Below, one piece after another: positions 197 through 62,416 of a stretch of 64,000 nt of DNA. The position numbers and the translations under genes were made by a program. Location of the stretch: assembly GCA_033439295.1 (NCBI GenBank), contig JAVTLE010000015.1:620001-684000 (forward strand), read 5' to 3'. The notes under the pieces are model-generated. The model was not told the DNA's origin. It made no database searches and was given only the letters and a program-made list of their open reading frames with translations. Source of the stretch: Deuterostichococcus epilithicus. Taxonomy: Eukaryota > Chlorophyta > Trebouxiophyceae > Prasiolales > Stichococcaceae. The number at the start of each line of letters is the position of its first letter. The stretch's first letter is position 1.

Positions 197-2052
197 GTGT
201 TCTCTGGCCTGTGGCGGTTGGGTGCCCCCTCGGCGGCGCAGCTGCTGGGTGTGCAGCCCGACATTGCCTGCTACGCCAAGCTGCTGACAGGTCTGGCCCG
301 GCCATCTCGCTTGCTGGGTTCAGAGGGTCCATCTGGATCCGGGGCAGGTTGAGGGCGACTGCGCTGCCGGTGCTACCACAGATTGGGCTGCCATTCTGGG
401 CGGCCTGGCGGTTTGGTGCCTGCAATGCCTCTGCTGTTGCCACTTGCAGCAGCAAGCAGGCGTCCTGAGGACACACCTGCACACATGAACAGCCCTGCTT
501 CTGTGCAGGCGGCCTGCTGCCGCTGGCAGCCACTTGGGCCGCCCAGGCTGTCTTCGGTGTTTGCGATGGGCCCGCCTGATTGACCAGATAGGAGACTTAC
601 AACCACGCGAGCGCAGGCGGGCTGCTGCCGCTGGCGGTGACGCTCGCCTCGGCGGACGTGTTCGCCGTCTTCGAGGGCGCCGCTAAGACGGACGCACTGC
701 TGCACGGGCACTCCTACACGGCACACCCCATGGGCTGCGCCGCGGCGGTCGCTGCGCTGGACATGTACAGCGACCCGGCGCGCAACCCGCGGCAGTGCCG
801 CCCCCCCGGCTGGGGCGCCGAGGTGAGCCTTTCTGCCAAGTGCTGCATCGATTGCAACATAGGGCTTGCCTGGCGCTGAGGTTTCCCGCTGGCGAGGTGA
901 GGCAGCTGCTGGAGCGGTGGCGCCGTCCAGCACAATCGCTCTTTTCTTCGAGACCTCCGACAATAGCACATCCCGCTTGCCGCTAGAACAGCCGGCTCAG
1001 CTGTTTCTGTTGCTGCTGCCTGTCGCGGCGCGCTAGTTTTCAGTGGTGCCTTGCCCATGCACCGAGGATAAAGCCACCTGCCAAGCAGGGCGACGGAGGC
1101 CGGCAGCCTGCAGCCGGCGCCGCAGCGGGCGAGCCAAACAGCTGCTGCGACCCGGAGGCGCCGTGCGCGCAGCCGTGCGGGCGGCTGGCAGAGTTCTGGG
1201 ACCCGGCGCTGCTCCTGGAGCTGTCGCACCATCCCGCGGTGGAGCGCTGCCATGCTCTGGGTGAGGATCGTTCTTGCTCCCGACCCCATCCTTGCAGAAG
1301 CACATCCGAAGGCACCCAATCAAGGTGGCAGCTATGTGTGGTGGTGCAGCAGCTGCGCAACAATGGTGCGAGGATGCCACACTGAACCAACCACCGTGCT
1401 GAGAGCCTCTGCGCGCAGCTGCAGAAGGGCGGTTCGCTCTGCCAGGGCAGCGTCATGTCCTGCGCACCTGCCCGGCATCGTGGGGCCGTGTCCGATGCCC
1501 CTGTGTGCCCTCCGATGCTTGTGCACACCAATTTCCTGGGTAGGCGCGACCGGCCTGACCGGCAGACGGGTGCCGACCGACGGGGACTGATGGCGGCGCA
1601 GGCACGGTGCTGGCGGCAGAGATCCGGGCGGATGACGCTGGCCTGGGGTACAGCTCTGGCGCTGCCCGCGCCGTCGTCAAGCGTATGGCGCCGCACGGTG
1701 GGCTCTCTCAAGGACGCTGCAATAATTTCATTCCTTTTCTTCAGCCTCCGCTGTGCTGCCGCACCGCTCACGCGTCGCAGGCTGCTTGCCACGGCTCAGG
1801 CTCATGGAATCGGCGGCTGTTCCCACTAACATCCTGGCCGGCACAGCAGGATTGGGATCTTTGAGGCGGTAGGGTCCCAGTCTCGGTGTGAAGACTCAGA
1901 GAATCATTGTTGGGTGTTTGCAAGTGCCGACGCTCTTTCCTGCAGGAGTCTACGCGCGGCCGCTGGGCAATGTGGTCTACCTGATGGCGACGCCCACGAC
2001 AGCCAAGTCGCGCTGCGACGGTCTGCTGCGGCGGCTGCTGGCATCGCTCTGA
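197..2052 (+). CDS. BIO1: Adenosylmethionine-8-amino-7-oxononanoate (DAPA) aminotransferase, 3' part (BIO1/BioA; possibly a BIO3-BIO1 fusion)
   Basis: Class III PLP-dependent aminotransferase of biotin synthesis, converting KAPA to DAPA; in plants this is the C-terminal half of the mitochondrial BIO3-BIO1 protein. Only the C-terminal part lies here; earlier exons are beyond the left edge. Exons read 197-290, 617-822, 1089-1260, 1602-1697 and 1946-2052, and the codon phase closes at every junction. The first exon carries VFSGLWRLGAPSAAQLL and then PDIACYAKLLTG, the PLP-lysine region. It continues into LLHGHSYTAHPMGCAAA, and the last exon has VYARPLGNVVYLMATPT, close to the plant enzyme's end. 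The exon at 1089 begins with a poorly conserved Gly/Ala/Pro/Cys insert of about 35 residues before the LSHHPAVERCHAL segment. The stop is TGA at 2050-2052. Whether a dethiobiotin synthetase half precedes it cannot be seen. Confidence 0.9.
504..576 (+). repeat. Intronic echo of the exon starting at 617
   Basis: About 72 bases match 612-684 without gaps at a constant offset of 108. The first 23 bases, spanning the AG acceptor and the GGLLPLA codons, differ at one position; the rest is weaker. The copy lies in the intron 291-616 and keeps an AG in the acceptor position. A still weaker third copy may lie at about 428-458. Confidence 0.75.
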
Positions 2053-2379
2053 GAGGCCGCGCGTGTGAAATTGGCGACGATACCGCAAAGAGGCATTGTT
2101 GGGAGAATCAAAGGCCGGTCATCGCGCCGCAATCGACTTCGTCCTCAGCATTCACATCTGATCATTTCAGTGAGGTTCGTGCTGTTCAAAACCTGATACG
2201 TATTATAAGTCTTCTGATAGGACTTGCCATCCCTTTTAAAGCTTAGCCCTGGACGAGCCAGAACCCATGCACAGCAATCTCAGTCCACGCTCTGACACAT
2301 TTTATTGGAAGGTCAATATCTGCATGCCTATGGCTGCTTATTGTCACCCCAGCAACGCCGCCGCCGGGCAGTACTGCCG
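2053..2379. other. Tail-to-tail intergenic region
   Basis: It lies between the convergent aminotransferase and Nudix genes and must hold both 3' UTRs. It is AT-richer near 2160-2240. No gene, repeat or clear TGTAA signal was seen. Confidence 0.6.
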
Positions 2380-4171
2380 TCACTCCACCCAGGAGCCGTC
2401 TCTGAGCCGCTCCGAGATGAGGGGCGCGAACTCCTGCACAACCGCCTCATACACCTCCCTCTTGAAGGGCACCACCTGCACCACAGCCAGTCACCGTCAG
2501 CCGGGTTGCGACCAACAGCGTTCAGCTGAGCAGCTTGTGCCTGGTGGGCCACAGGCAGCAGACGCATGCCGGGCGATGTCTTGCTGCGGGTGCCGAGGGG
2601 CCGCGTGCGCCACGGGGGGCTGCATGTCCGAGTCCGAGCATGATCGCCGGTGAGGGTGGGCGATGCGGGGGTTGCACAGAACTGCGCACGTGGCGCGGCA
2701 TCTCCTGGATGTGGACCCACTTGTACTCCGAGAACTCCGGCTCCGGCTGCTGCAAGTCGATCTCGCTGTCCTCGCCCTCAAACAGCATCAGGAACCTGCG
2801 CGAGACACTTTGGGAGTTTTGGTTCCCGTCATGACTTTGGATCGTGTGCGCCCACCACTTGACACTGGCCCCCCTCCTCCGCCCCCCCCAAACCCACGCA
2901 CCTGGTTCCCCGCCCTCGTGCGCCCCTCCATGGCTGCGTGTAACAGAGGGCGTGCAACAGAGGGCGTGCACGAGGGGCACTGAGTAGCTTGCATGCGCAT
3001 GTGGCTCGGAGCCGGCAGATCAACACGCTGCCGCTGAGCAGCAATATTCCCTCTCAGACTGCTGCTTTCATGACAGCCGCGCCCAGGAGCATCATGACAG
3101 GGTCCCCACCAGGCACGATTGCAACACGCCCCAGCATTTTCAACTTCTGCCATCACTTCTGCCATCATGTGCACGGGCAGCAACACTAGACGGGCACGCA
3201 CGCTTTCTGCCGCTGCCCGTGCGCCGCCGCCGCCGTGCCGCACGACTGCCAGAGTATCATATGCAGAAGGCGCATCTTCGGCGCGCACCACTTTTGCCGC
3301 TGCCCGCGATGGTGCCGCCGCCCGTCCCGCCGGACGATGGCCAGCACCTCCGGCGGGAAGTCGTACTGCAGCCAACTCGGCACCTGCGCCACGATGCGGG
3401 CGCTGCTGACTCCCGTCTCCTCCGCCAGCTCCCTGACGACTGCCGCGGCGGGGTCCTCGCCCTCGTCGATGCCGCCCTGCGCCGCCGGCGGAATGCGTCA
3501 CTATCCAACCATGAGTGACGCTGCTTGTGCAAGCCAGGCTCCTGACAACATGTCCGCATCGTGGAAGTCGCTGCCCTTCTAGCCCGTGCGTTCAGCCTGG
3601 TCTGCTCACCTGTGGCATCTGCCAGGTCTGACTGGTGTCATCGAGTCGCCTGCAGCGCATCGGACCCAAGATGACACCTCAGCGTCTGTGACACACATGC
3701 TAGACTGTATGGTCGCTCGTACGTAATTACGCAGCTGCCCAATTAAAACCTCGCAGCGAAGATGAGCCCTTGTCCGTTGACAAGACAGACGCCGACGTTC
3801 TGCCTGTAGCCCAAGGGCTGACTGACTGCGGCGCTCGCCACAGCGGCATCTGCTGCTGCCGCTGTGTGGCACCGCCTCGGGCAAGGAACTGGCTGCAGAG
3901 CACTCTGCAAGGCTGAGAAGGGTGCAGCTTGGAGGGGACTGCTGGTGATGGCCGGCTGAGAGGCATGGGTGGGCCAGATCACAGAACGGTTCGAAATCGC
4001 ACAGCAAGTGCGGGGCCAGCGAGCGATCAGGGAACAGCGAGCCGGGTGCAGACACAAGCGAAATGCTACCATCACACGTGCCCAAGGGTGATGCGGGCTG
4101 GCAAAGGCTGAAATGGCATCACGAGTGCATGCAGCGTCAGCACTCGCCACTCGGCGCGGCATCTCGGGCAT
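2380..4171 (-). CDS. Nudix hydrolase (RppH / NUDX26-27-like)
   Basis: Nudix pyrophosphohydrolase of the RppH/diadenosine-polyphosphate type. Five exons close perfectly in frame: 4171-3750, 3649-3610, 3476-3289, 2795-2690 and 2475-2380, giving about 283 residues. The core begins GYRQNVGVCLVNGQGLIFAA, continues RRLDDTSQTWQMPQ, then the complete Nudix box GGIDEGEDP...RELAEETGV fitting GX5EX7REUXEEXGU. GQRQKWFLMLFEGED and the acidic segment EIDLQQPEPEFSEYKW follow, and the protein ends near ERLRDGSWVE. About 110 residues before the core are Arg/Ala/Ser-rich and hydroxylated, which suggests an organelle-targeting extension, but an extra intron there cannot be excluded. The first ATG at 4171 is followed by a second three codons on. 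The usual KWGGxYRGQ segment is altered to RRDGRRHHRGQ. The gene is head-to-head with the membrane protein at 4354. Confidence 0.9.
2945..2974. repeat. Short tandem duplication in a Nudix intron
   Basis: Two adjacent copies of a unit close to CAGAGGGCGTGCAA lie in the intron 2796-3288. A second short tandem pair, CTTCTGCCATCA twice, lies at about 3147-3171 in the same intron. Confidence 0.7.
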
Positions 4172-4353
4172 TTACGGCGCCTGTACGTGTCCGCCATTGG
4201 CAAATTGTCTGAGTTTGGTTTACTGTACTCTGAACGTCATCTCGTGAGTGCAATGTATTGATGGTTTACTCAGCGTGGTGCAGTCGAGACTGTTCAAATA
4301 CCGCCCGATCAGCTGGCTGCGCCGCACCCATTTCAGCTCTTCTGACTTGCAGG

Positions 4354-17453: not shown

Positions 17454-17495
<42 letters not shown>

Positions 17496-17627
17496 AGGCA
17501 GGTTGCTTGCACGCAGCGCCCGGCGCCATACCGCTGAGCAGCGCTGCCGGGGGCACGCATCTGCCGCACGCATCTGCCGCACGCAGCGGAGAGCGCCCCT
17601 CTGCTGCCATAGCGGCGGGCTAGCCGC
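16121..17627. other. Tail-to-tail intergenic region, probably the long 3' UTR of the KH-WW gene
   Basis: It lies between the coiled-coil gene and the KH-WW gene. A TTACA at 16656-16660 reads as TGTAA (the green-algal polyadenylation signal) on the minus strand, about 970 bases past the KH-WW stop. It also holds a trinucleotide repeat at 17459-17495 and a 281-codon plus-strand open frame (16692-17537) that I do not accept as a gene. Confidence 0.45.
17459..17495 (-). repeat. (CAG)12 / transcript-sense (CUG)12 repeat
   Basis: An uninterrupted run of about 12 CAG triplets on the plus strand. It lies about 130 bases past the KH-WW stop, so the KH-WW transcript would carry it as CUG repeats in its 3' UTR. 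Confidence 0.85.
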
Positions 17628-21583: not shown

Positions 21584-24500
21584 ATGGCAGGCTCGGAGTA
21601 CAGCAGCGTGAGCGGCCTGGCCCGGGTGCTGGACAACCCGCGCTGGCCCATCGCCCGAGCCTGCGCCGCCGTTGCCAACTGCCTGGAGCTCAGCAGGTGA
21701 CCCTTACACGCCAGGCATCGCATGAGGCCTGCACACCATTGGCCAATGCACGTCGGCAGCAGACCTCCTGCCGAGGCAGAAGACCTCCTGCTGAGACGTG
21801 CATCGCTCCCTACGGCCCTACGGGCGTGCGCCACGCTGCCCGCATCACGAGAAGTTTAAAATGAAGGCGGGAAGCAGACCTTAATGCGGCGCACCAATGC
21901 GCAGAGACAACTACCGGCCGTTCTTCGAGCAGACCTTCCCGCTGCTGCTGCGCCGGGTGTTCGGCTACGACGGCGCCTCCTGGCTGACCGCGCTGGCGCA
22001 CAACGGCAAGGAGGCTGACATCAGCGCCCTCCTCGACCTGCTGTCCCCCACAGGCGCGGCTCTTGGCTTCCTCTATGATGTCGCGAACTCTGCAATGGGC
22101 TGAAGTGTGGCAGAATCTCGGAACAAAGCATCGCCCCGCAGAGCACCGCGCGCGTCTGCGAGGCGATTCGACAATTTGACATGCCGGCCGGCGGCGGGCA
22201 AGGGCCAGCAAGCCAGCGGCATCGTCGGAAGCTTGGTTCTGGGTCAGGCGGACGTCTGACGCCGGTGTGGCGGTCTGCAGGCAAGCTGTTCGCGGCGATG
22301 CACGCAGTGGACGCGGACGCGCTGATAAAGTACCACTTTCCCACGGAGCGCCTGCCGACGTACACCCAGGCAAGCTGCCTGCAGCGCAGGTGCTGTGGCA
22401 CTTGCAGGGCTCCCGAGCCTCAACAGCCGCCTCACCCTCGCCAGCTCAATCTCACTGGCTGGGCTCTGCTACTTCATTAAAGCGACACCTTGAGCATGAC
22501 TCTCCATCTCCCCCATAGGTGCTGCTGACCTCGGCGCCGCGCCAGCATGCATGAAGCAACACCATGAAATAACATTGTTGATGCTTCTCGTAGGTCCTGC
22601 TGAGCTCGGCATCGGGGCGCACGATGCTGGGCACCTGGCCGCAATACTCCGGCGGCGCCGTCGGCGTCGACGCCACCAGCCGCCCGCACATCCACCTCAA
22701 CGTCTTCCGCTACTTCCTGGTGCGGCTGCGCTGCGCTTCATGCATGCTCGGCCTTCGGACATGCTGATAGTCTGCATCTCCTGCTTGGCAATGGAGCCTG
22801 CCGTCAATGCGGCTGCAGCAAGTCAACAGCTTGCCAATTGAGGCAGATGCGGCGTTATGCGTGTGCGTCTCCCGCAAGACATATTGGCGGCAGCCTCACT
22901 GATCCCTGGGCTCTCCCAACCTACCGAGGAGATGCAGCTTGTCGGCTGAGGTGTCATCGAGTCAGAGCACTGCATGAATTGATGTCGAGATGAGAGCACG
23001 CGCGGCGCAGGCGTGGTTTGCGTTCTACGTGCTGCGGGGTGGCCTGGCGGACGGCGATGGAGGCCCCGGCCCAGCACGCCCCGGCGGCTACATGGGCTCC
23101 CTCAACCCTGGCCAGCTCACCGGCTCCGTGCTCAAGGCAAGCTATATATGGTCTCCACCAGTGCGCACCTCTTCGTGGTGTGCCCGCGACTGTAGTGGGG
23201 ACGCAAAGTCCGCGAAATTGCATCATTGTTTGGAAATGGCAGTGCGCGTCGAGCGGGAAGGTTACTGATGTCATTCGATGGCGCGTGCATCAGCTTACAA
23301 CCCTCCACTGCCAAGACAGTAGTCATGCTCAGTGAACGTCGAACCGACATGCTGGCCCTGCAGGCGGCGGGCTCGCTGCGGCTGACGCGCGGGCCGGGCG
23401 CCGGCGCCGGCGGCAACCCCTTCTATCGGCTGCTGCGTCTGTACCTGCAGCACTTCCTGCCGCGCGCGCCGCCTGGTGGTCCCAATGGTGCGACTCGTGC
23501 CTGCCGCTTTGCCGACCTTGGGGCCTTGGCCAGCACGTGGACGGATGCGCTGCTATGCATGCGCCAGACAGCACGCGAGACCCAGTTCGGCGTCATGCAG
23601 CACTCTGTGTCAGCAGGCAGCTACAGGGTGCAGCGGCTGTTGGCATGCAGGAAACTCTAAGTCCTGATCAAAGTCACCATCCGCCAACAGGCAACGGAGG
23701 CATTGCCTGAGAACAGCCGCTTACATACTGGTGGCGCAGTGGCCAACACTACAGCATGCGAAGCCACCAAATTTTACATCAGCAGGCTGCAGCCCAGCGG
23801 GCGAGGTGTTTTGCAGCGTGCACATGGATCGGTGGCTGAGAACAAAGTTCTCGACAATACAAGCCATTCAACAACCAAAATTGCCACTGCACCAACAGCC
23901 GGCAGCAACAAAAGCTTGCACAGGCATGGTGGCCAAAGTCACAGCATCCAAGAGACGAGCCCTGCGGTAACAGGCGGCGGCAGCCCGGTAGGCGAGGTGT
24001 TTTACAGCGTGCTCGTGGAGTGGTGGCTCACCGACGGTGAGGAGCCGCTGCCGCTGTCGACACCCGCGGGCGCTGGTGCGGCTGCGACGACGACGGCAGC
24101 CGCCTCCACTCCTGGCACCGCGCAACCCCTGCGGTGCGGAGCATGCCTGTGCCTGGCTGCTGGCTGTGTGACCCTGGGCATCACCGTGGCTGCGTGTCTT
24201 CGGAGCCTGTGCAGCTTGCCCAGCTGTGGCAAGTTATGAAGACCGAATGCCAAAGGGCCCGATGCAGACATGTGCTGGAGAGAGTGCAGTGATGGTTCAA
24301 ATATTAATAATTGCAACAGATGTCGGCCGCATGGCCGGCGCAGACGACACCTTTTTGCTGAGCACTCTCCCGCATCTGTCTGCATCGTTCCACAATGGTG
24401 TTGCACTCGCACCCTGCCATTCCACTGCCACAGTGTGGGACTTGCAAGCTGCGGACGATCACGAGCTGCAGGGGATACGATCGAGTGAGCTCCTCCTGGG

Positions 24501-27500
24501 AGTGACCAGACCACTGCCAGTCACTTCCCAGGAGTCATGCCCCCCTGCGTTGCCGCTTCGCAGGTCGCTGACGTACGAGGCGCCAAGCGCAGAGCTGCTG
24601 GAGGCTCTGACGGTGCTGGTGCGACACGCTACCGTCCTGGAGGACGCGCCTGCGGCTTTGGGGCCGACTCCAGGTGGCGGCGGCGGCCAGCCGCAGCCGG
24701 CGCAGGGCGCCATGGCATGGCTGCCGCTGCCGCCGGTGGCGGCGGCGCCGCCGGTTGCCGCGCGGGCACCCCGGCTGGCGGCCGCCGCCGNGGCTGGGCG
24801 CTGCCGGCGCGCCCGCAGCGCAGGTGCGTTGCTGCGCCGGCATCAGGCAGTCTGCTCGCTGGCTCGGCCTTGCTGGCGATGGTACCGACAGAGCCGCTCT
24901 CTCTTTCTTGCAGAATCGGAGGTTGGTGGCAGCAAGCCTGTTCAGGGTAACATGCACGGGGCATGAAACGAAAGAAAATAACCACTCCGCTGCACTCCCA
25001 CGCGGCGCCTGGACGAGTGTCCCTCTACAGGCACAGCAAGCATTCTCTATGCTGTGCAGGCTCTGGGGAGGCGGTTGTACCGCCTGCTGAAGCGTGCGCT
25101 GAGCTTCTGGCCGGAGCAGCGCTCTGTGGAGCCGGTGTTCACGCTGTGGGTGGCGCTGCTGGCGCCCTGGACAGTGCCCGAGGCACCAGGTGAGCCAGCA
25201 TTGCCTCTATCTCTCGCACGAGTGTCCCCGAGCCTGCGGGTGATGCTGCTGGCGCCTTGGGCGGTGGGCGGTGCCCAAGGCACCGTGTGCGCGATCCTTT
25301 TTGAGTGCCTCCCTCAGCGGGGACGGTAGCTGGTGGGTCCAGCTTTCAGAACTTGTTAAATTTGGCCTCCCAGTGTCATCTCTCACGGCTGATACTGAGC
25401 GAACGTATGACGAGCTCGAGCACCGGCCTGCAGCTCAGTCTTCAGGGACGATGACAGCCATCGCTTTGGCTCGCTTCTGTAACTCAGCAGCAGCAGATGG
25501 CACGTGCACGTGGTTCTGCAAGTGTGCTAAGGAGGGTGCAAAAGTGCTTGACGAATTAATGATTGCAACAGATGTTGGCCGCATGGCCGGCGCAGACGAC
25601 CCACACTTCACTGAGCGCCCACCCCCCCCCGCCCTCTTCACATATGCCTACATGTGCAGTGCGCCAAAATTTCAAGCTTGCACAGATTCCACATGTTGCG
25701 AGTGCAGCTGTGGCACTCGCAGCTGCAGATGACCGTGCTTCAGACTGTCAGCTTCCTTTAGACCCAGTCCACAAGTTTCCTACAATCCAAATGCCGACTG
25801 GAGACCGATAAGCAAGCGCTGTGTGCTGCCGCAGGGTGGTCAGCGCCAAAGCAGGAGCAGGGCGGCGGCAGCATGGCGCGGCAGCTGTCGCGCGCCAGCA
25901 GCCTGCTGCCGCATGGCGCCGCGGGCGGCTTGCGCCGTGGCAGCGTGGACCTTCGCTTTGCCTGCCCCCCGGGTGGTCGCCTGCTCCCAGTCCCCTTTAC
26001 ATGCGTCTCATGGGAATGCGGGGCCAACCATGGAGCAGCTGCAACGTCATGGTGCAGCGGCGCTGTTGTGTCTACATGCAAGCATGCCAGACGTGTCTAT
26101 CGGAGGGAAAATGACGGTCAAAGCTATCACTGTATTCCAGCCACTTGATCCATGTCTGGGCTGCTCGATGCTGCTGCTGCGGCCCACGGCAGGTGGCCAC
26201 GGTCACCTCAAACGGCACATCCCCCTTGCGAGCACGCCAGTGTGTGGTCTGCTGCATGGTACCGCCAGCGGGCGCTGTTCCGAGAGGCCTGACACCTGCT
26301 GCGAACGTGTCGGTGGCAGGCGGCGCCGGCGCAGCAGGCGGCCGATACGACGCCCGGTGCTGGCAGCCGCACGTGCTCGCGCACCTGCCGGTATATGGCG
26401 TTCTGGTGCCGCTGGCTGCGGAGGCGGCGGNGGCGCGGGTGCGGGCGCGCGGCCAGGAGCCGGCGGCCACGCTGCTCAAGGTGCTGCGGCAGGCCGGACA
26501 TGTCTGTGCTCTCGCTGCCGGCTGGCGCCCTGAGAAGCGTGATGAAGGCTCACACGATGTGCTGGATGCGTGACGGTCGCACACCCTGACGCTGTCCGTG
26601 TGGCCGAAGCTGGGCTTCTCCCAGCAGATGCATCCCCACTGCTCCCGCGATGCTCGGGAGTGTGACGCCTCTGCCTGGCATCTATTGTGACCCAACTGTG
26701 TCGCTCCATCACACATCGGTGCACATGCCCTGCGGTCACTCACCCCAACAAAGAACTGCACCCCCGCGAGCGATCGGAGACAACCCGCAGCCATAAATCG
26801 TGAGACTGAAGCGATCATCCAAATCCTGTAACGACTTTGGGAAACCCCCCTTTACGATGCGCTGCAGGTGCTGGAGGTGTTCCAGGCGGCGCCGGAGCTG
26901 GCGGACCTGCTGCAGGCCGTGGAGGAGGAGGCGGCGCGGTTCAGCGGCGGCGGCGCGACGCCGCGGCGGCGCCCGGATGGCCCCTTCGCCGAGCTGCTGC
27001 CCTGGGCGGGCGAGCAGGTCGCAGACTGGGAGGCCGCCGCCTCCGCCGGCGCCTCGCTGCCGGACGTAAGCCGTGTGCCTCCCTGGCACTCCCGCCCAGT
27101 CCGGCAGGCCCCGTCTTCAGCCATGGATCCGTGAGCAGATCAAATGACGGATAATGGCAGCGCAATTTGAATGCAGGTGCAACTTCCATGGATGCGGTCA
27201 GCAGCGCTTGCACAAACAGCAGCAGGAGCTGCCATCTGCAGGCGCAGCTGCTGACCTGACTCTCCCCTCGCCCACCTGCGCAGGACGTGCCGCCGGAGCT
27301 GAGCATGTTTGCGACAGACGCGCGCGGCGCCGCCCCCTGGGTCGCCGCTGTGCTGCGAACCAGCGAGGGCGCTGCGCCGCCGCAGCTGCTGGCAGGCCTG
27401 CGGGCGGTGGCGGAGGCGGTGCTGCCGCTCGACCGGGTAGTGGCCGCAGAGCAGCCGCCGCCGCCGCCCGTGGTGCCGACGCGGGGCCCGCCGGGGCAGG

Positions 27501-28739: not shown

Positions 28740-28744
28740 TGTAA
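28740..28744 (+). terminator. Candidate polyadenylation signal TGTAA of SMPD4
   Basis: TGTAA is the usual poly(A) signal in green algae. This one lies 252 bases after the stop codon, at a plausible 3' UTR length. Confidence 0.35.
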
Positions 28745-34946: not shown

Positions 34947-37900
34947 TCAGTAGGCGCCCGGAACAAAGTCGGGGCCGGGGCGGTAGGGTTGGTAGCGCCC
35001 CATCGCGGCAACGCCCGCATGCGCGTGCCGCAGTGGCCCGGCGTCGCCGCGTGACGCCTGCAGCGCACCAGTGAGTGCCATCAGCGCAAAGTCTCAACGA
35101 CGAGCCCGACTTGCTGTGGGCAGAGTCGCAGCCAGGTGGCACATCGAGCGGGCGGTCAACACTGCCAGGTCAGGCGGTTTCGTTGCATGTGCTGAGGAGT
35201 CTGGTAGCTGAGAAGTATTTTGGGAATGTGCAAGGGCAGGTGTGAGGTGCGGCAGACTCCCGCTCACACAGAGGGACTGCATGCGAGGTGGCAGCCTTTC
35301 CTCAACTGAAGCAAAATGCAGCCGTCTCGGGGCCAGGTCGATGATGTTCACAGCGCACTTCAGATGGAAAGAACACCCAATCACACAGCCACCAGCACGC
35401 AGGACGCACCAGGTCGATGATGTTCATGGCGGCGGCAAGGCCAGGGTAGCCGGCATCGCCCAGCGGCGCCAGGGGACCCGTCTCCTCCCGCCGCGGCACC
35501 GCGCTGTCGATCGCCACCGCCGCGCCCTGTGCATGCGCAGCGCACGACTGGTTTTGGAGGTGCGAGCCGGCGAGTCGCAGACTGTGGATGTCATTGCTGG
35601 GGCCTCTGCTGTGGAAGAGGTCGCCGCCGCAGACACGGGGCCGCTGAAGCAGCCCTTGGCAACTTGCAAACCCAGTGCCGCGACAAGCGTCGGCAGACTG
35701 GCCGACAGCATGAATCTGCGACAAACCCAACGATTCTAGAGAGAGGGGTGGCGTGGTGACGTGTGGAAGAGTATAGCCTGGAAAAGGGCGCGCGCACCCA
35801 GGTCTGGTGCAGCCCATGCGCGGCGCATGGCCAGGAGCTCAGGGGCAGTAACAGGCCACAGCAACAGGCCACAGCAACAGCTTGAATGTTGAAACAAAGA
35901 CTCTGACTGACACCAGCTTGTGAAAAGGAAGGGCCACGTACCCGGATCTGGTGCAGGCCATGAGCGGCGACGCGGTGCACAGCGGCCTCCGTCTCAAAGG
36001 TCACAAAGCCAAAGCCGCGGTGCTCGTGCCGGTTGTGCTTGTCGCGCGGCATGTACACGTCCATGACGTAGCCGAACCTGCGTGTCGTTTTGTGCAGATG
36101 AGGGTGCAGGCCCGGGCCACGCACTTTCCGACACATGATGCAGGTTGGGCAGCAGCCGCATTCCGCCCGGCTTGCAGGAGGATTCTTCTGCGTCTGCTCA
36201 CCGGGTGAAGTACTCGCGGACGTCAGCCTCCGTGGTCGCGCGATTCAGTTTGCCTACGAAGATGCGCGGCCCCGCGTTTGCGTCCAGCCCGCTGGTGACG
36301 CTGCCGCCGCCGCCGTGGCTCAGCGAGGCGCTGCCGCCGCCCGACATGGTCGGCGAGCCCGCACGGCCGCCCGGCTCCATGGAGCTGCGCCGCCCATGGC
36401 GCTGCTGCCCGTCCATGTCACCTGCCACACAGTCCGGGTCGGCAGGGGTCGGGGCGGGGGAGGCGCCCGAGTGCGAGTCGCTGGCCGCTGTGAAGAGCCT
36501 ACTCCATCTGCAGTCGCCTGCCCATTTCAAAGGTGCTTTCAAGCAACCAGACATACTGCTGTGCTCAAGCGAGTACCAGCGAGGAATGAGCGTCAGCAGA
36601 AGTATGGCGATTGGAGCTTGGCCAGGATACTGCCTCGGAGCTGCATCCATTGCACGCGCACTCGGGAGCAAGGCTGGGACCCACCTGCAAGGCCGCTGTG
36701 GGTGGGGGAGCCGCTGCTTGCGATGTCCATGCTGCTGCGTCCCAGGCGCGGCTGTTGCGGCGGCGGCTGCGGGTAGCCACTGTGCTGCACCTGCTGCATG
36801 CCGCCGGCAAAGCCGCCCATGCCGTCCCCGCCCAGCAGTGCGGGCAGGCCCTGCATCGCCTGAGTGCGCAACACCACCTGCCATCGATCATCCGGCGCAA
36901 ACTGCACCAGTTGAGCCCAGCAACGTCTTAAAGTCGGGAAGCGGGGCCACAGGCATGAGCATCCCAGAGCAGCCCTAGTAGCAAAACAGTGTTCTGAAAG
37001 GGCTTAGGATCGTGCCCACCTGCATGTTGTTGGAGCTGCCAACTGCGCCAAGGCCATTAGCAGCGAGCAGGGCTTCCATGTCGAGGTTGCCGCCCGCCAG
37101 CATGGCCGCCAGCTGCAGTGCAAGGAGTTCAGAGTTCAAGGAAACACTTCTAGGCGGGGATGGCAGCTGCAATCGAGATCGCAACGACCGAGCAAGCTGC
37201 CTGCTGACAGCTCAGCATTGCGCCCCTGGCCCGCCGCCGCTGCCAGGCACTGCTGCTGTTACCGCCCTGCTGCTTCGCTGCGGCAAATGCAGACTGTGAT
37301 CAGGGTGTCAGGGTGTTCATACGCACCTGGCCACTGGCGTCCTGGCCGCTAGGCCCGGGGCGCTGCAGCGCGGCGGCGCCCGCGGCGGCGGACAGCGCCG
37401 CCGGGTTTATGCCCAGGCTGGCCGCCATAGCGTAGGGGCTGGCGGCGGCGCCGTACGGCATGGCCTGCGACAGCGAGCCGCCCAGCGCACTGCCTGCGCC
37501 ACACGAGGCGCCCGTGAGGCCTGCACCTTCGAGGAGTGTCAGAGGGCGCTTCCAGGTGGTAATGGGCGAGCGGTTGCTCAAGACTCGTGCACCCCGGGGG
37601 GGGGGGAGGGGGGACTTTCTAGCGCAGTCTGACATCAGCAGATAGTCTTCGGTCGTCCCGCTGCACTGGATCTCGCATGGAGTGCCATCAGCGACAGGCG
37701 CACCGCTGCTGCGGCCGCCNGCGCCGGCGGCTGCGCCGGGCGGCGGGGAGCGGTCCTTGGGCGTCGCCCGATCGATGGCCAGCTCCTGGCCTGCCAGCAC
37801 GTGCGCCACCGCCATCACCTGGGTCGCATGATGCAGCAGCGTCTTCATTTTGCTGTTCTTTTGCTGGCCTTATCATTTCTTGGGTTGTTCCATCTGGTTT

Positions 37901-41285: not shown

Positions 41286-44200
41286 ATGATACTCACCGCG
41301 GAGTTCAGCAATGAATTTGCCGCTGACACAACACGCTTTCGACCTGTGGTGCAGGAGGAGGCATCCATCCCCATCCCGCCGGTTGCCAGAGGCATGCCAT
41401 CAGAGCAGAACCTGCTGGACGGCGCCCGCGCTGTGGTGCCACCCCTTTCGCGTGCGTTACAATGCCACGCGCTTGCTGGCGCCTGGCCTGGGCATTGCAC
41501 TCATCTGCATGGCATGGATAGCAGCGGGACGGATTGTGGCATGTCTGCATTGTTGCCCGCTTGCAGGGCTTGAGGCACGAGGCTCGCTGCTGCTCCGAAC
41601 CCTGGCTCCTACAGATCTCAGGGCACGTCACGTATTCAAAGCAGTATGCCTTGCAGCGGACCGATACAAGGGCCAGGCGGGGAAGATTGGCACCATCGGT
41701 GGGTGCCGGGAGTACACTGGCGCCCCTTACTTTGCCTCCATCTCCGCACTGAAGGTCCCCTTTTGCACCCATGGCTCAATGCACAGACAAAGTCCGCCTC
41801 GGTTACTGATGACCTGCCCGGCAGCAGCTTGGTGGATGCAACTACTCCCGCCTCCGGGCTGCCACGATCGTCCGCGGTTTGACTGATGAACAGCCTACTG
41901 ACGCACATTTGACATTGCTGTGTCTCGCCACAGGTGGGGGCGGATCTGTCGCACGTATTCTGCACGGAGGGCGCCGCCACAGTCATCAAATCCTACAGCC
42001 CGGAGCTCATCGTGCACCCCTACCTGCCCGACTCCTACGGCGTTGACGATGAGCAGGTAGGGGAAACTTCTGTCGGCCCTGCAGTGCTCGCAAGCTGGAC
42101 TGCTGCTGCTTGGGTGTGGGCTTTGCACAGCCAGCAACCATGTGCCCTGCTGATGACATCTCATGCCAGAGGAACCACCTCCGAATGGTCGCCGGTGGGA
42201 CAGGGGCAATATCTGCCTCTGTGGTTGCTGCACCAGAGCTCGTCTCCTGCTGTTCTGCACGCCAGTACGATCCTGGATTGTGACGCCACTGCAAAGGCGG
42301 CGGACTGCGCTGTGAGTGTGACGTGAGATGGAATCTGATTCAGATCATCGATGTTGAGCCATTCGATTTCGTACTACGATGCAGAGGCAGCAGCAGGAAG
42401 TGGAACGCGCGGTCGGCGCCGTCGAGCACTGGCTGCCGCGCTTTGACGTCATGGTCATTGGCCCGGGCCTCGGCCGTGACGCCTGGGTGCACGCCACCGT
42501 CGTGAAGGTGCACATCGTCTGTTCTCATTGTCTGTTCTCTCGCCCCATTCTACTGTTGCACCACATGCGAGGTTGAGAGCTGCATGTGTGCACCTCCTTC
42601 CGGCAGCTGTGCCACCTGCCCGAGTACACTGTCAGCAACCTCCATCAGGTGGCCAGACAGACTCCAGAATTCATCATGTCGGCACATTTTTTCCTGTTGG
42701 TGGCTGCAGTTGTTTCTTGCTGTGTCATCCTGGACTTGCACGCTAGCAGCTTGCTGCGCAGCAAGCTGCTGGGACTGGCACAGCTGCCAGGCACGCCGCC
42801 ATGCTTGAGAATTGCGCTTCTCCGTCTTGGAGGCACCCCACGAAGCATCTCGCCCCTCCTGCCGCAGCAGGTCCTGCTGTTGCTGGGGACGGACAGCAGG
42901 CTCCGTGGTGCCGAACTGCCGAGCAACATGCCTGCCGAGCAACATGCCTGCCGAGCACCTCGCAGGTTTCAGGGTTTGCCTGCAGGTGCTGCAGCCACAG
43001 CGGGCTCGCAACAAGCGCAGCGACTCGTGTCAGCACCAACCCTCCTCCCTGCGCCGCAGGTGCTGCAGTCGCTGCGGAAAGACAACAAGCCGGTGGTCAT
43101 TGACGCGGACGGGCTGCACATCATGAAGGACAACCTGGAGCTGCTACAGGGGTGGACCGCCGCCACGCTGACGCCCAACCGCAACGAGTTCGCGCGCCTC
43201 GCTGACGCCGTGGGCATCCAGGCCGACGAGGAGGACCCCACCGCCCAGCTGGAGGAGGTGAGCGCTGGAGTGTGTGTTTGAAGATGTCCGACTGCAGGGA
43301 GGCGATCCGAAAGGCGCACTGGGTGGTTGGAGCAGGGAAGAGGACGACACTGCTCACCTGTCAGGTCCCGAGCTGACCTGCGACTTGGTTTCTCATCCTC
43401 ATGCTCTGGCTGGAGACGCTCAGCGCCCCTCCCAAAGAGGCCCTGTCGCTGCAGCCCTGACGAGCGGATCGTTCACTGCCGGGGCAGGTGGTGCGGAAGC
43501 TGGGCGGGCCGGTAGTGGTGCAGAAGGGTTCTGCCGACACCATCTCGGACGGGAAGCACACCATCGCGTGCACCCGGGAGGGCTCGCCGCGCCGAGCCGG
43601 CGGCCAGGTGCATCTGTTCGAATGCACCCCAGTTTCGGTGCTGGACTGGCTCGGGGCAGTGGACGCTTCGATGCGTGTCTTGCCTTCCTCCTCTGGCCGT
43701 TTTCTGCCTGTGTTGCTGGAGGAGCACCATCCAGTCGTTGCCCTGCTGTTGACGAGCTCCAGCGCCCCGCCAGCTGGCCATGCACGGGCAAGTTGCGGGC
43801 AGGGTGTGTCCCCAATTTCCAGTTTGAGCATTCCACTCCCCAGGCGCTGCCCGTCGGAATTCTCACTGCCCTGGGACCCTCGTTCCTCGTGTGCAGGGCG
43901 ATGTGCTGTCCGGCACGCTGGCGGCCTTCAGGTCGTGGGCGGTCAACAACCCGGGGCCGACGGAGGCGGCGGCCAGCAGGCTGGGCATACCGCCAACGCT
44001 GTTGGCAGCTTGGGGCGCCTGCGCCACCGTCCGGCAGGCATGTGTACTGACCCGCTGACTTGCTTGCTTCACCCGCTTGTTGGACGACCCGAGCTGAGGA
44101 TCTCGGGCCTGCGGCTGGCGGTGTCATGATGTCTGAGGGTGAGCGCAGATGCGGACCCGCTGCCTCCCAGGATGCATGAGAAGCTCCTGTAAATTCTGTG

Positions 44201-57634: not shown

Positions 57635-60600
57635 TCACTGCTGCTGCAACACCAGGTACGGCGAGTCGAGGACCGCAAAGCCGGCGGCGACGCCGCCCTC
57701 GTCCGACGTCGCTGCCTTGGTGCGCAGCAGGTGGCCCGCCTGCCGGTTGAGCAGCACAGCGCCGTCGGCCGTCACCCAGGTGCCAAAGACGCCCAGCTCC
57801 GAGAGTGCGTCCACCTCCGCAACGCGACCCTCCCGCACCATGGCCGTCCTGCGGCGTGTCGGAAGTTCAGGTCGAGAGGGCGATGAGATAATGAGCTACT
57901 GTCTCTTTGGTATTTAGGTAGGCGGCCTCCAGCTCCGCGATGCCCCCCTCCCGCACCGTCACCTACGAAGCCGGGTCAAGGGTGAATTGTGTAAAGCAGT
58001 CGGCCCCTGCCTCCAGCTCTCCTCCAGCCCTTCGCACCATCGCCAAGCCGCTTTGCTTAGAGGGAGAATCACAGGGTGGTCTCGCAGCTTGCGTGTAAGC
58101 CCCACGGCGACGCGGCGTGCAGGCAGCCCATGCAGCCCATGACTGCGCCGCCGGCAAACGCCTGGACCACACATGCACCACACATCATTGCCACCTATGC
58201 AGGGAAGATTTCATTGTCACTGGTGTCGTCTCGACAGCCTGCCCACCTGTGAATGGGCGGCCGGATGCGCTGCATGAGGATGTAGGCGGCGAGCCCCGCG
58301 CGGCCTGCGATCTTGTCCGCTGCCTGCTGCCCGTACAGGTTGTTGCCGCCGCCCTCGCGCTGCGGCTTCAGCACGAAGGCGTCTGGCGCCACCGCCGCCT
58401 GCTGTAGGACCTCCACTGTCTCCGGGTCGTCCAGATCGTCCAGCCCCCACAAGCCTGCCCGCATCGAAGCCAGAGTATAAGGAACAGGCTTGCCGAGACA
58501 CGCCAATGGTCAGGCGACTGTAGACACTTGCACATGTGCCGGCAGTCGTGATCGCACGCCGGCTGGCTGACAGGCAGGCGCCCACTCTGCCGATTCAGGG
58601 ATGGGGGCCTGGGGTAGCAGCAGCCGCGCTGGCAGGGCGAGCTGACGCGCGGCCGGCCGCGGCCGCGGCGCGGGGTGCAGCGCCAGCAGCGCCAGTCAAC
58701 CAGCGACTAATGGAGAAAGCAGCCCTAGGCAGACCGGTTCGAGCATGGGATGCAGCTTCTTCTATACTAGCATATGATTTCTCAGCGCCGAACCCGCGAA
58801 GCAGGCGCGCAACAGCTCGGCATCCGAGGCGTCCACCACGAAGCGTTCCAGCACCCCCGGCCTCGCCAGGTCCTGCTGGATCTGCGGCGCATGGGCAGTA
58901 GCGGGTGAAGAGGCATCGATGCTGAGGCTGCCTTGCGACAGCAGGGGGCCTGAGGTGCAATGGTCAGGATGACAGAAGAACATAGGCATGAAGGCAGCTC
59001 GCAGAGGGACACTGNCCCCCCCCGGTGCTCCGGCAATTGCAGAGGTCCCTGCAGCTGCTTGTTGCTGTGCACCTGAGAAACCGGCCGCTGAAGCGGAACA
59101 GAGTTCTTGGGCTTCATCGGCGGGTTTCGAGACGGCAGCGACCCGAATTGCGTGGCAATACTCTAGATTCACCTGACACTATGAATTCACTTCTGCGGCC
59201 CCACTGATTGCTACGCCATGCTGCGAGACCCGCTGCATGCAACTTGATGCATCGCACACAAGCCCTGCAGCACAGGCAGCCGCCGCAAGGGTCGCTACTC
59301 TGACTGATGCGCCGCCCTACACGGCAGCGGCACAGCCGGCCGCAAGCCGTTCGAATTTTCGCTGCGCAGCGTGCATGGGCCAATCTACAATGCCGAAAAG
59401 CTGAACATTGACCTATAGTCCTCAGCGCATGCAATGCAACTACCGTTTTCGACGCCCGCCAGCTGGAAGGCGATGCTGGAGCACTTGGAGACACCCACAA
59501 AATACGTGCCAGTGACCTCCGCGGTCGAATGTAACCTCGTCTCGATGTGCGACATTCTTCCTCACCTTCTTGGCGCCCGCAAGCTGGAAGGCGACGCCAG
59601 GGCACTTGGCCGCGGCGCTCCGCTCCAGCTTTTCCCGCGCCACCCAGTGCGCCTCGCTCGGATAGTCGTCTGGCGAGTAGCCAGCGCGCAGATAGATGCA
59701 CCCTATCCGCACGCCTGCGGCAGCACGGGCGCAGTGCGCGCCACGGCATGTCGAAGGCAGGCGGTGCTGCCAGAAATCCCAGCGCAGGGCCGCAACAGGA
59801 TGTCGGAAAGGCCCTCTGGTAGTTCAACGGCGGCACTTCGCATGCGGACCCCAGTTGCAGGTGCCGCCCAGGGGGCGGTGCGCTGCACGACATGCAGCAT
59901 TATGCACGCCAGGCGCGGCCCGCAGATGCCTCACGCGCGATGGAGACTGTCACCAGGACGACCATCTCATGTCTCTGTATGATTGTGAGCAGAGCGTCAG
60001 GACCAGTGACTGAATGGCACTGCAGAAGGGGTCGGCCTTTTAGGGTCTGCGCGCACCGTCGACGGTGAGGCTGCCGTCCTCCGCCAGGGCAGCGCAGCCA
60101 TCGTCGGCTATTTGCTCCAGGGTGCGCCGCAGGGTGCGCACCCGGTGCCGCTCCCACAGCGCCGTCTGCACCCACTGCGCAGGGACGACGGGCAGAAGGA
60201 CTTCAGGGGGTGAGCAGTAGTGTTGCTTCGAGAGGTGAACCGCCCCGATGACAGGCCATTGACTAGCGCATGCCAAGGAGCCTGCGGTGCATCGTGCGCT
60301 GCCGCTGGCGGCAGCGGGAGGAAGACCGAGGTCCCCACTTGTGTGGTTCCAGCACCGCCCAGTGCCAGGGGGAAAGCGCCACGACTTGAAACGGAATGGA
60401 GCCCGCCTGCTGGTCGTAGCTGTTGCGCTCGCCGGGCTGCACGACCATGAGCACTGAGGCGTCGTCGCCGCCCGCTTCCCGCGCGCCCAGCGCGATGGCT
60501 TCCGCGACGCCCTCCGTCGCCTCGTTCTCCGGCAGCTGCGCCGCCTCCTGTGGGATCCCGCATGAGGGCTTGGAGACCCAACGCTGCAACTGGAAGTGCC

Positions 60601-62416
60601 GATGTGCGGTGGCCCTCGTCGCCCCGTTCGTTGGCGGCTGCGCCTCCTCCCCTCGGGGCATGGCCACAACGACATGGGGCTCTTGCAGCTCGCTTTCGAC
60701 GCCACGCAGGATTGCCTGTAATCGGCTGCACACTGCAGTTCCATGGTAAAGTCCATGCCACAAGCACCCTGGATGTCGGCCTGGGCCGCTGCCGCAGCCG
60801 AGGCGGCACGGGTTGCCAGCTGCATGCTGAGGAGGGGCCACGCAGGAGAGAGCCTGCCCAGGGGCACTCACGATGTCGGCGCGCCCGGAGCGGCTGAGCG
60901 TGTAGCGGTGCAGGCGGCTGACGATCGCCGACAGCGGCCCGAAGGACGATGCGATGGTGTTCAGCTCCACCTGCGGGGTGCAGTTGGGCTTGGGGTTTGG
61001 TCCCTGCCTCTGTCACCTGTGCGCTTTGCCTGAGGAGGAACGAGCCCCTGCAGAGGCACACGTCGCGTGGGCTGCAGAACGCAACCGATCCCAGCACCGG
61101 AGGTGGACCGCGCCCTGCCAGCGCGACGCAAGGGGGTGGAATACACACTGCGCCCCCCGACACACACGCATGTGCGCATGCACACGTCGGCTTCCAGGGT
61201 GCACGCTGCAGCACCTGCAGCAAGGGGCATTGGCCAGACCCGGGGGGTTGCCGGATTGGCCCGTCCAGCATGTGCATGAACACCAGGAATTCCGACACTC
61301 GACAGTGAAAAGCTTTGGCGCCTGCAGCAGACTGTCAGACTCGTCCAGCATGCGCAGAAGCACCAGGAGTTTCGACGCTGCATAGTGCGAAGCAGCAGCA
61401 CCCTGAACCCTAAACCCTACCTGCAGCAGGGTGTCAGACGGCTCGTCCAGCATGTAGTCCGAGCGGTTGACGGCGACCACAGTGCGCTCTATGCGCCCTG
61501 CGGCCCGCAGCTCCTGCGTCTTCCGATGCACCTCCAGCAGCCGCGCCTGCAGGGTTCAGGGCTTCAGGCAGGTCTGCATGGCAGCGGGTGCTGATGAAGG
61601 GTTTCGGGACAATCTGTGCGCGGAGGAGCTGAACCTGACACCACCGGACAGGACCACATGCAAGGGACAAGGGAGAGTGAGGCACATCGTTCAAGCACAC
61701 AACTTGACAGGCAGAACCGGTGTGATTCGTGATACCGCATACCAGGCCGCAGGCATGCGATCGTGGAGATCTCATGGGTTGTGAGAATTTCTGGTACAAG
61801 GCATCGCTGCGGATGACGAGTCCCCACCGTGAAGTCGTCATACTCCGCCGCTGGCGCCAGCGTGCGCTGCAGGTACTCGCCGTCGGCGGCGACGGCGGCA
61901 ATCAGGGCGTTGAAGGCCGGCGCCGCGGCGCACGCCTTTCGGAAGCTGGCCTCCGGGAACGGCGACGGCAGCACGCTCAGCGGCGCGTGCAGCACAGCGG
62001 CCTCTGGCGCGTCCGGCCCCGCGCCCACAAGCTGCCGCGGGTGCGGAGCAGCGTGTCAGATGAGGCTGAGGGCGCAAACAATGCCTTCCAGCATGCTCAC
62101 CAGGCGTAGCATGAGCCGTGCGCTCATGGCGACACTGCCATCGTTGAACACTGCGCCGGCCCGGCGGGTCGGCGGGCCGGAGGTGATGCCGTGAAGCCAG
62201 CATGTGCCGGCGGCATGCAGGGCAGCAGCCATTCAGGTTGTCTCAGCCTGTCAGAGGGTGCGGCTAACCTCACATGGAAACGCGTACTGACAGCGCAGGG
62301 ACACCCTGGAGTAGCAGATGTGTCAGGCGCACCAGGCCATGCTGCGATGCCCATACCACTGCGTCCTGAGCCAGCTCCTCGAGCGACGGGTGCACGGCAT
62401 CACCGGCGGCCGCCAT
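57635..62416 (-). CDS. GSH2: Glutathione synthetase (eukaryotic type)
   Basis: ATP-grasp ligase joining gamma-glutamylcysteine and glycine, the last step of glutathione synthesis. Ten exons close in frame: 62416-62333, 62031-61828, 61546-61421, 60970-60872, 60547-60407, 60174-60057, 59714-59566, 58881-58794, 58454-58247 and 57848-57635. The product is about 476 residues, matching the usual 470-480. Landmarks in order: LEELAQDAVVWASQHGL, VNRSDYMLDEPSDTLLQ, VELNTIASSFGPLSAIVSRL, VLMVVQPGERNSYDQQ, IYLRAGYSPDDYP, AKCPGVAFQLAGAKK, the glycine-rich loop FVLKPQREGGGNNLYG, YILMQRIRPPIH, and the substrate loop LLRTKAATSDEGGVAAGFAV. The start ATG is in good context for a cytosolic form with no clear transit peptide. 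The intron 60406-60175 starts with GC. Three introns contain echoes of adjacent exon edges. Confidence 0.96.
57921..57961 (-). repeat. Intronic echo of the last glutathione synthetase exon
   Basis: On the minus strand ACGGTGCGGGAGG and GCGGAGCTGGAGGC echo the exon start at 57848-57804 (ATGGTGCGGGAGG, GCGGAGGTGGACGC). An AG precedes the copy, but entering there would meet a stop in the coding phase. Confidence 0.75.
59451..59488 (-). repeat. Downstream echo of the glutathione synthetase exon 59714-59566
   Basis: The plus-strand stretch GCCAGCTGGAAGGCGATGCT, with GAGCACTTGG after it, matches 59571-59609 at offset 120 with about five differences in 37. Translated it reads CSSIAFQLAGVEN against the exon's CPGVAFQLAGAKK. 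Confidence 0.85.
61262..61392 (-). repeat. Two downstream echoes of the glutathione synthetase exon 61546-61421
   Basis: The copy at 61322-61392 keeps CTGCAGCAG, TGTCAGA and CTCGTCCAGCATG from the exon end (61421-61452) and would read RMLDESDSLLQ against YMLDEPSDTLLQ. A second copy at 61262-61313 shares CGTCCAGCATG, CACCAGGA and CGACASTCGACAGTG-like sequence with the first, so one was copied from the other. Confidence 0.8.
61401..61420 (-). repeat. Telomere-like (TTTAGGG) repeat forming a splice donor
   Basis: On the coding strand the intron after 61421 opens GTAGGGTTTAGGGTTCAGGG, about two and a half units of the plant/green-algal telomere repeat. The GT donor lies within the first unit. 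Confidence 0.7.

What the first reader, a model, noticed from the sequence alone, without database searches (positions are those of the whole stretch)
504..61470. Recurrent 'exon-edge echoes': decayed tandem copies of splice-site-spanning exon ends inside adjacent introns
At least ten introns in five genes (aminotransferase, SMPD4, RRM, NAD(P)HX dehydratase, glutathione synthetase) hold a 20-70 bp copy of the neighbouring exon edge, acceptor or donor, 75-190 bp away. The copies were seen directly; several keep the AG or GT. Such local duplications could create decoy splice sites, seed new or alternative exons, or regulate splicing. They may also reflect how introns grow in this genome by slippage or microhomology repair. 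The recurrence is beyond what I would expect by chance and I know of no description of it as a general feature.
Basis: partly seen in the sequence, partly recalled or inferred. Interest (0 to 1): 0.85.

Follow-up and report, generated by a model that had tools for sequence, protein, structure and literature searches.

The report
Exon-edge copies inside algal introns
In this green alga many introns carry one or more worn copies of the neighbouring exon's edge, split off by unrelated filler DNA, which looks like the scar of DNA-repair insertions landing at the exon-intron boundary and suggests that introns here lengthen from their ends.

Summary
In the window, 12 exon edges in 6 genes have 14 decayed copies in the adjoining intron; each alignment beats 300 shuffles. 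In 344 kb of the same genome, 66 of 1064 exon edges match their own intron, against 2 of 1064 with a random intron. A stricter score gives 50 of 961, against 0 of 4468 random introns and 0 of 1341 introns 2-3 away in the same gene.

The anatomy differs from simple slippage. In 22 of the 28 best-kept pairs (six dropped for doubtful gene models) the copied block reaches 21-70 bp into the exon and mostly ends near the splice site. Beyond it, identity is 0.24 (chance 0.25). The copies flank filler. Uniform placement predicts over three times as many intron-only as edge duplications; I see 3 against 31. Telomeric repeats, a separate marker of inserted DNA, also cluster near splice sites.

Best reading: staggered-break repair (fill-in duplication plus filler) at exon-intron junctions, tolerated because the insert is spliced out. 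Why junctions are preferred is unknown. I found no support for decoy or regulatory function. No RNA data and no relative's genome were available.

The parts
505..575 (+). echo of the acceptor edge of the aminotransferase exon starting at about 617 (source 613-683)
   Evidence: 49 of 71 identical, score 27, shuffle max 18; exon model; PF00202
613..683 (+). source: real acceptor edge, aminotransferase
3193..3246 (-). echo of the Nudix donor edge (source 3280-3335), offset 87; my gene finder kept most of it as exon (GQRQK twice in the predicted protein), probably wrongly
   Evidence: 42 of 56 columns, score 24, max 16; PF00293
3280..3335 (-). source: probable real donor edge, Nudix gene
   Evidence: the edge is inferred
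22516..22535 (+). echo of an SMPD4 acceptor edge (source 22591-22610)
   Evidence: 18 of 20 identical, score 16, max 12
22591..22610 (+). source: acceptor edge of the SMPD4 exon 22594-22719
23739..23837 (+). echo of an SMPD4 acceptor edge (source 23929-24028), here with visible intron similarity too
   Evidence: 71 of 101 columns, score 37, max 16
23929..24028 (+). source: intron end and start of the SMPD4 exon at about 23975
25144..25202 (+). source: SMPD4 donor edge at 25189
25234..25299 (+). echo of the SMPD4 donor edge
   Evidence: 46 of 66 columns, score 24, max 16
35333..35355 (-). echo of an RRM-gene donor edge (source 35409-35431)
   Evidence: 21 of 23 identical, score 19, max 13
35409..35431 (-). 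source: donor edge of the RRM exon 35410-35526
35784..35825 (-). echo of an RRM-gene donor edge (source 35929-35969)
   Evidence: 35 of 42 columns, score 26, max 13
35929..35969 (-). source: donor edge of the RRM exon 35942-36077
42855..42909 (+). far echo of the NAD(P)HX dehydratase acceptor edge (source 43044-43097)
   Evidence: 41 of 55 columns, score 25, max 13
42982..43016 (+). near echo of the same acceptor edge
   Evidence: 27 of 35 identical, score 19, max 14
43044..43097 (+). source: acceptor edge of the exon 43060-43257
   Evidence: PF01256
57807..57839 (-). source: glutathione synthetase, start of the exon 57635-57848
57925..57957 (-). echo of that acceptor edge
   Evidence: 27 of 33 identical, score 21, max 16
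59446..59488 (-). echo of the glutathione synthetase donor edge (source 59567-59609)
   Evidence: 35 of 43 identical, score 27, max 13
59567..59609 (-). source: donor edge (..CPGVAFQLAGAKK), homologs run on across the junction
60509..60548 (-). source: glutathione synthetase acceptor edge at 60547
60612..60650 (-). echo of that acceptor edge
   Evidence: 33 of 40 columns, score 24, max 16
61262..61313 (-). far copy in a three-copy array (aligned to 61342-61393, echo plus filler, not to the exon itself)
   Evidence: 40 of 52 identical, score 28, max 14
61321..61352 (-). near echo of the glutathione synthetase donor edge at 61420
   Evidence: 30 of 35 columns, score 23, max 13
61400..61420 (-). 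telomere-like repeat in the filler, directly at the real donor site
   Evidence: contains a 13-mer without mismatch, 0 bp from the edge
61420..61454 (-). source: donor edge of the exon 61421-61546 (..DTLLQ)

Best explanation
The echoes are scars of local DNA-repair insertions at exon-intron junctions. A break with staggered ends, one end a few bases inside the intron and the other 20-70 bases inside the exon, is filled in on both sides, so that the exon edge with its splice signal is duplicated, and the two copies are joined through unrelated filler, occasionally telomeric repeats. The copy next to the exon serves as the splice site; filler and outer copy join the intron and decay. Shown here: two copies of an edge, mostly non-homologous filler between them, block ends near the splice site, the excess over intron-only duplications. 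Inferred: staggered break, fill-in, order of events, neutrality. Why breaks or insertions favour junctions is not explained; processing of exon-long RNA-DNA hybrids that end at the junction is one possibility, untested here.
For: Own-edge match 66 of 1064 against 2 of 1064 with random introns; 50 of 961 against 0 of 4468. Block ends abruptly: identity just beyond it is 0.24 on the intron side and 0.236 on the exon side, shuffled pairs 0.252, n=22. Of the 22 blocks, 14 end 0-14 nt past the predicted edge, 1 ends 21 nt past it and 7 end 1-27 nt short of it. Fillers share no family: of 63, pairs with E <= 0.05 are copies within one array (or fillers that overlap because two echoes share an edge) plus three chance-length matches of 12-13 bp. 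Exon-involving against intron-only pairs 31:3 at identity >=0.84, where uniform placement predicts 0.13:0.436. Exon share of the block is >=0.59 in 22 of 22; under uniform placement 38.6% of edge-straddling intervals reach that, so for the 14 blocks that do cross the edge P is about 2e-6. Telomere-like 13-mers: 13 of 13 in introns, shuffled-unit control 0.94 in introns and 0.41 intergenic; 9 of 13 lie 0-16 bp from a splice site, combined P 1.3e-4. Of 20 exact ones drawn elsewhere on C1, 11 lie within 20 bp of a predicted edge where random placement in the non-exon part of the same pieces gives 3.0. Five cases hold both telomeric letters and a duplicated edge: C1:78381, C1:35874, C1:131254, window 61420 and L044. 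Weak: nearest echo more alike than farthest in 7 of 9 multi-echo edges.
Against: Six of the 28 best-kept pairs were dropped because the block lies 36-144 nt inside the predicted exon; by eye most look like model errors, but this was not proved. Gapped scores beyond the block are somewhat above chance (mean 6.64 against 5.28); without C1:130578, C13:18631 and C1:129423 the mean is 5.53. Some pairs do include intron sequence (C13:18631, window 23739-24028, C1:23387), as plain tandem duplication would. Few fillers hold telomeric 7-mers (6 of 63, expected 1.3) and 18 of 20 telomeric loci from C1 show no flanking duplication above shuffles, so the two signals may be separate. No exon-intron pair exceeds identity 0.952 in the ungapped list, which a steady recent process should give. 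Gene models are self-trained and contain errors.
Confidence: 0.52

Rival explanations
1. Ordinary local tandem duplications (exon edge plus adjoining intron) arise anywhere; only those in introns or across an edge survive. The exon copy is conserved, so its half stays visible, and gene conversion from exon to echo may keep that half alike while intron halves and intron-intron pairs fade.
For: C13:18631 is a true array of exon edge plus intron start; window 23739-24028 aligns over 101 columns including intron; gapped scores past the block are slightly above chance. Exon-bounded similarity also appears between tandem paralogs beside the window.
Against: The best-kept pairs (0.91-0.95) mostly show no trace of the intron half, although a neutral copy should be about as alike as the exon half. 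The 31:3 ratio exceeds the factor of about two that constraint alone gives (the factor is my inference). It does not explain telomeric repeats at intron ends.
Confidence: 0.25
2. The echoes are functional decoys, alternative splice sites or seeds of new exons, kept by selection.
For: About half of the echoes keep AG or GT (34 of 69); some were called as exons by my gene finder, such as C13:116111, C1:98649 and the Nudix echo.
Against: Retention is no higher than decay gives; mismatches spread over codon positions; real sites outscore echoes in 54 of 63; no clear bias of the offset to multiples of three.
Confidence: 0.06
3. Remnants of tandem exon duplication, or true alternative exons that were mis-modelled.
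For: Nine edges have two or three copies; tandem exon duplication is a known process (recalled).
Against: Blocks of the 69 pairs are 21-86 bp at one edge, whereas internal exons have median 123 bp; exon middles do not match adjoining introns (1 of 250); glutathione synthetase homologs run across the junctions without an insert.
Confidence: 0.06
4. A mobile intron-like element (introner) that inserts at exon edges and makes long target-site duplications.
For: Recurrent insertions at one kind of site; telomere-like ends face outwards from exons by genome-wide pattern counts: CAGGT then GGGTTTAGGG 108, then CCCTAAACCC 43; CCCTAAACCC then GCAGG 155, GGGTTTAGGG then GCAGG 56.
Against: Fillers have no common sequence; donor and acceptor junctions of the same intron are no more alike than shuffled pairs except for a slight tail; block lengths vary from 21 to 86 bp.
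Confidence: 0.06

Closest known systems
Small tandem duplications from fill-in at staggered breaks (CST and Pol alpha-primase, PMC8355091, passages read; Vaughn and Bennetzen 2014, patch-mediated breaks in rice, seen only as a reference there)
   Same: direct duplication of tens of bases created at one break; the passages mention 3' overhangs of 47, 50 and 54 bp
   Different: no preference for exon-intron junctions appears in the passages I read; here filler (mean 84 bp) is the rule
Telomerase-linked insertion of interstitial telomeric repeats at breaks (PMC2246262, passages read)
   Same: short telomeric repeats at internal sites, sometimes with target duplication (6 of 130 rodent and 4 of 25 primate loci in its Table 1)
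   Different: here the repeats cluster at intron ends; empty sites were not available
Intron gain by tandem genomic duplication of an AGGT site (PMC2891723, passages read; PMC4974935, abstract start seen)
   Same: local duplication involving splice signals
   Different: there the new intron equals the duplication; here the offset is shorter than the intron in 69 of 69 pairs and junction-to-junction similarity is near chance
Donor duplication in stwintron formation, Lipomyces (PMC7138796, passages read)
   Same: authors propose duplication of the donor through repair of a staggered break
   Different: 4-7 nt duplications in one gene, nested functional introns; here tens of bp, both edges, in a genome sample
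Introners (PMC9860276, passages read)
   Same: insertions that change introns in bulk
   Different: family sequence and, in some families, 3-9 bp target duplications; neither found here

Membership tests
Fill-in duplication at staggered breaks | direct duplication of tens of bases with abrupt ends | tested here: met
   22 best pairs reach 21-70 bp into the exon, identity at chance beyond them; a few exceptions continue
Fill-in duplication at staggered breaks | pre-insertion site known to hold one copy | not testable with these tools
   no relative's genome held
Telomerase-type ITS insertion | short telomeric repeats at non-terminal sites beyond chance | tested here: met
   AAACCCTAAACCC 785 hits, 1 for the pattern read backwards; many are terminal, 25 interstitial places are listed on C1; 13 near-exact in the sample against 1.35 for shuffled units
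Telomerase-type ITS insertion | made by telomerase | not testable with these tools
   orientation bias in pattern counts fits extension from exon-side ends, but also splicing preference, and is not seen at donors in my sample
Intron gain by tandem genomic duplication | intron length equals duplication; both splice sites from one repeat | tested here: not met
   offset shorter than intron in 69 of 69; junction similarity z-scores scatter around 0
Introner | repeated family sequence | tested here: not met
   63 fillers, no shared family besides fillers of one edge
Introner | 3-9 bp target duplication at the two intron ends | tested here: not met
   578 introns, no consistent excess at junction positions; slight tail of high scores
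Plain tandem duplication of edge plus intron | intron half copied as well | tested here: not met
   22 best pairs, identity 0.24 against 0.252 chance; clear exception C13:18631
Tandem exon duplication | whole exon copied with both splice sites | tested here: not met
   one edge only in the listed pairs; exon middles 1 of 250

The most novel reading that the evidence does not exclude
Exon-intron junctions are themselves preferred sites of DNA breakage and insertion in this lineage, perhaps because RNA-DNA hybrids made by spliced RNA end exactly there and are cut at their ends; telomerase and fill-in synthesis then act on the broken ends. Introns would be renewed and lengthened from their ends, faster than their exons change, which would also explain tandem paralogs with 82% identical four-fold sites but unalignable introns.
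Probability: 0.27. Interest if true: 0.87.

Novelty: new variant of a known kind. Interest (0 to 1): 0.62.

Why it matters
How introns grow is mostly inferred from comparisons. Here single-genome scars with readable parts (source edge, filler, decayed copy) would let insertion rate, direction and age be counted. If the junction preference is real, it ties splicing or exon-bounded RNA to DNA damage, which can be tested directly. Practically, echoes mislead gene finders: mine called several as exons.

Tried and rejected
Whole-intron gain with flanking repeats: 578 introns compared at both junctions, no signal beyond a slight tail (score >=11: 9 against 2.55 expected). A shared filler element: none. 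Reading intron-intron pairs as independent events: several of the 14 at offset 60-260 look by eye like echo-echo pairs, and two come from one array of a 41-bp unit. Rfam on the window: no match at gathering scores. Far controls of the genome-wide telomere patterns are high (46 and 75), so near-splice enrichment by pattern alone is only about twofold; the sharper evidence is from gene models. C-rich and G-rich 8-mers are about equally common in the first 30 bp after donors in my sample (19 and 20), against the pattern counts, so orientation is not settled. The 78-bp repeat in two SMPD4 introns is not a dispersed family: two places in the genome.

Dropped rows: 6 of 69 edge pairs whose block lies more than 30 nt inside the predicted exon were left out; all six are among the 28 best-kept. 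Low-complexity DNA (14392 bases) was masked. Of 25 interstitial telomeric places listed on C1 I fetched 20. Mended while checking: the dinucleotide count counted empty strings as matches, so one search replaces it; the filler comparison printed only 30 lines, and one search lists all with E <= 0.05.
Full report
Setting. The window is C13:620001-684000 of an unnamed 46.8-Mb genome in 21 contigs. Among the 120 best of 4591 matches listed, the glutathione synthetase protein is closest to metagenome proteins (73% over nearly full length, 77% over three quarters) and, among named sources, to Coccomyxa, Myrmecia and Elliptochloris (about 59%), so the host is probably a trebouxiophyte alga that is not itself named there. 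I held 344 kb: the window plus 280 kb from C13, C1, C3, C6, C9 and C16, and twenty 401-base pieces from C1.

Gene models. I wrote a hidden Markov gene finder and trained it on the sample itself. It gave 71 genes and 608 introns and learned a donor like GTGCG and an acceptor TGCAG. Pfam recognises the six window genes used here. Alignment with seven homologs supports most glutathione synthetase junctions, but also shows two false mini-exons (61062-61214) and one over-long exon. Edges are therefore good but not certain.

Is it there? Fourteen copies at twelve edges in six genes each exceed 300 shuffles. In the sample, direct repeats at short offsets are far above three controls. Of 118 pairs at offset 60-260, 69 join an exon or exon edge with intron: 38 acceptors and 31 donors. 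Fourteen are intron-intron, three intergenic, fifteen exon-exon and 17 mixed. Anchored tests give 24 of 479 donor and 26 of 482 acceptor edges matching their own intron; controls are 0 of 4468 random introns, 0 of 961 reversed edges, 0 of 1341 introns two or three away in the same gene, and 1 of 250 exon middles. A more sensitive scan gives 66 of 1064 edges (77 copies) against 2 of 1064, and 51 of the 77 copied segments reach within two bases of the edge. Scaling to the genome suggests on the order of ten thousand copies; this is extrapolation.

Anatomy. In 63 pairs, spacers between the real edge and the echo have medians of 70 (donor) and 80 bp (acceptor); blocks reach a median of about 44 bp into the exon and 1-5 bp into the intron. 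Of 28 best-kept pairs (identity 0.84 or more) six were dropped because their block lies 36-144 nt inside the predicted exon. In the other 22, 14 blocks end 0-14 nt past the edge, one 21 nt past it, and seven 1-27 nt short of it. Identity just past the block is 0.24 on the intron side and 0.236 on the exon side, against 0.252 for shuffled pairs; gapped scores are slightly raised (6.64 against 5.28), mainly by three pairs. Copying of edge plus intron would leave about 0.8. So the usual form is edge, filler, edge copy. Exceptions exist: C13:18631 repeats the intron start as well, and window 23739-24028 extends into the intron. Filler GC is 0.56, introns 0.60, exons 0.70.

Why only edges? Duplications inside exons would break the protein, but duplications inside introns should be harmless. 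Intervals of the observed length placed uniformly fall wholly in introns 43.6% of the time, in intergenic DNA 20.1%, and across an exon-intron edge 13.0%. Observed at identity 0.84 or more: 3 intron-only, 3 intergenic and 31 exon-involving pairs; the intron-only ratio is about 35 times off. Without the identity cut the counts are 14 and 84. Several intron-only pairs are not independent either. All 22 best blocks are at least 59% exonic. Slower decay of the exon copy explains a factor near two (my inference). The process, or its survivors, must respect the junction to within about fifteen bases in most cases.

Telomeric letters. Thirteen near-exact telomere-like 13-mers lie in the sample, all in introns; 17 shuffled units average 1.35. 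Nine lie 0-16 bp from a splice site. Eight-mers are dense in the first 30 bp after donors and the last 60 before acceptors; elsewhere in introns they are rare apart from single clusters 80-150 bp inside. Of 20 exact repeats taken elsewhere on C1, 11 are within 20 bp of a predicted edge (one, L048, in low-complexity DNA), four are called intergenic, and one, L044, has a clear flanking duplication; random placement in the same pieces would give 3.0. Genome-wide counts near splice-like words are about twice the far control and favour G-rich after donors and C-rich before acceptors. That orientation fits extension of exon-side ends by telomerase, but also ordinary splicing preferences, and my own sample shows both orientations at donors.

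Function. Echoes accumulate changes at all codon positions, hold the splice dinucleotide in 34 of 69 pairs, where decay alone would leave about two thirds, and score below the real sites in 54 of 63. I see no sign of selection for decoys.

A parallel. Beside the window two tandem methionine-synthase-like paralogs (name recalled from the protein) have ten matched exon pairs 72-99% identical and four-fold sites 182 of 223 identical, where saturation would give 0.37, yet none of 12 introns compared (10 of them between properly matched exons) aligns above 30 shuffles. Around the 99% exon the likeness runs 11 bases past the donor and then stops; averaged over ten introns the next bases are only slightly above chance (0.31 against 0.25). 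Either introns turn over faster than synonymous sites, or exons are converted while introns are not. Both point to the splice junction as a boundary for DNA-level events.

Literature. Ten searches found intron gain by tandem duplication, introners, stwintron donor duplication, fill-in duplications at breaks, telomeric insertions at breaks, and a proposal that introns protect exons from R-loops (PMC1863416, passages read). None of the listings or passages I saw describes exon-edge copies or telomeric repeats at intron ends as a general feature. Only open-licence papers are held, so this is weak evidence of novelty.

Verdict. The mechanism most consistent with it is repair insertion with fill-in duplication at exon-intron junctions. 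The junction preference is the surprising part and is unexplained.

Noticed in passing
C13:700.6-710.4 kb, right of the window (loci L005-L006; window coordinates about 80580-90363): Tandem methionine-synthase-like paralogs: ten matched exons 72-99% identical, four-fold sites 182 of 223 identical, but the introns are not alignable; likeness of the 99% exon stops 11 bases inside the intron.
   Followed up: partly
24271-24348 and 25523-25600: 78-bp repeat, 63 of 78 identical, in two different introns of the SMPD4 gene, 1252 bp apart; a search with part of it found no other place in the genome.
   Followed up: yes
3193-3335 and 61062-61214: Echoes and intron pieces are easily called as exons; the predicted Nudix protein holds an apparent 29-residue duplication (87 bp) that is probably an annotation error.
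   Followed up: partly
C13 block position 18661 in script coordinates (window about -1338, same aminotransferase gene): Tandem array of exon edge plus intron start, with three copies inside one 487-bp intron.
   Followed up: partly
13306-13360: Short TGGAA-type satellite stretch inside a predicted intron.
   Followed up: no
59015, 24791, 26431: Single N letters scattered in the assembly, some inside predicted exons.
   Followed up: no
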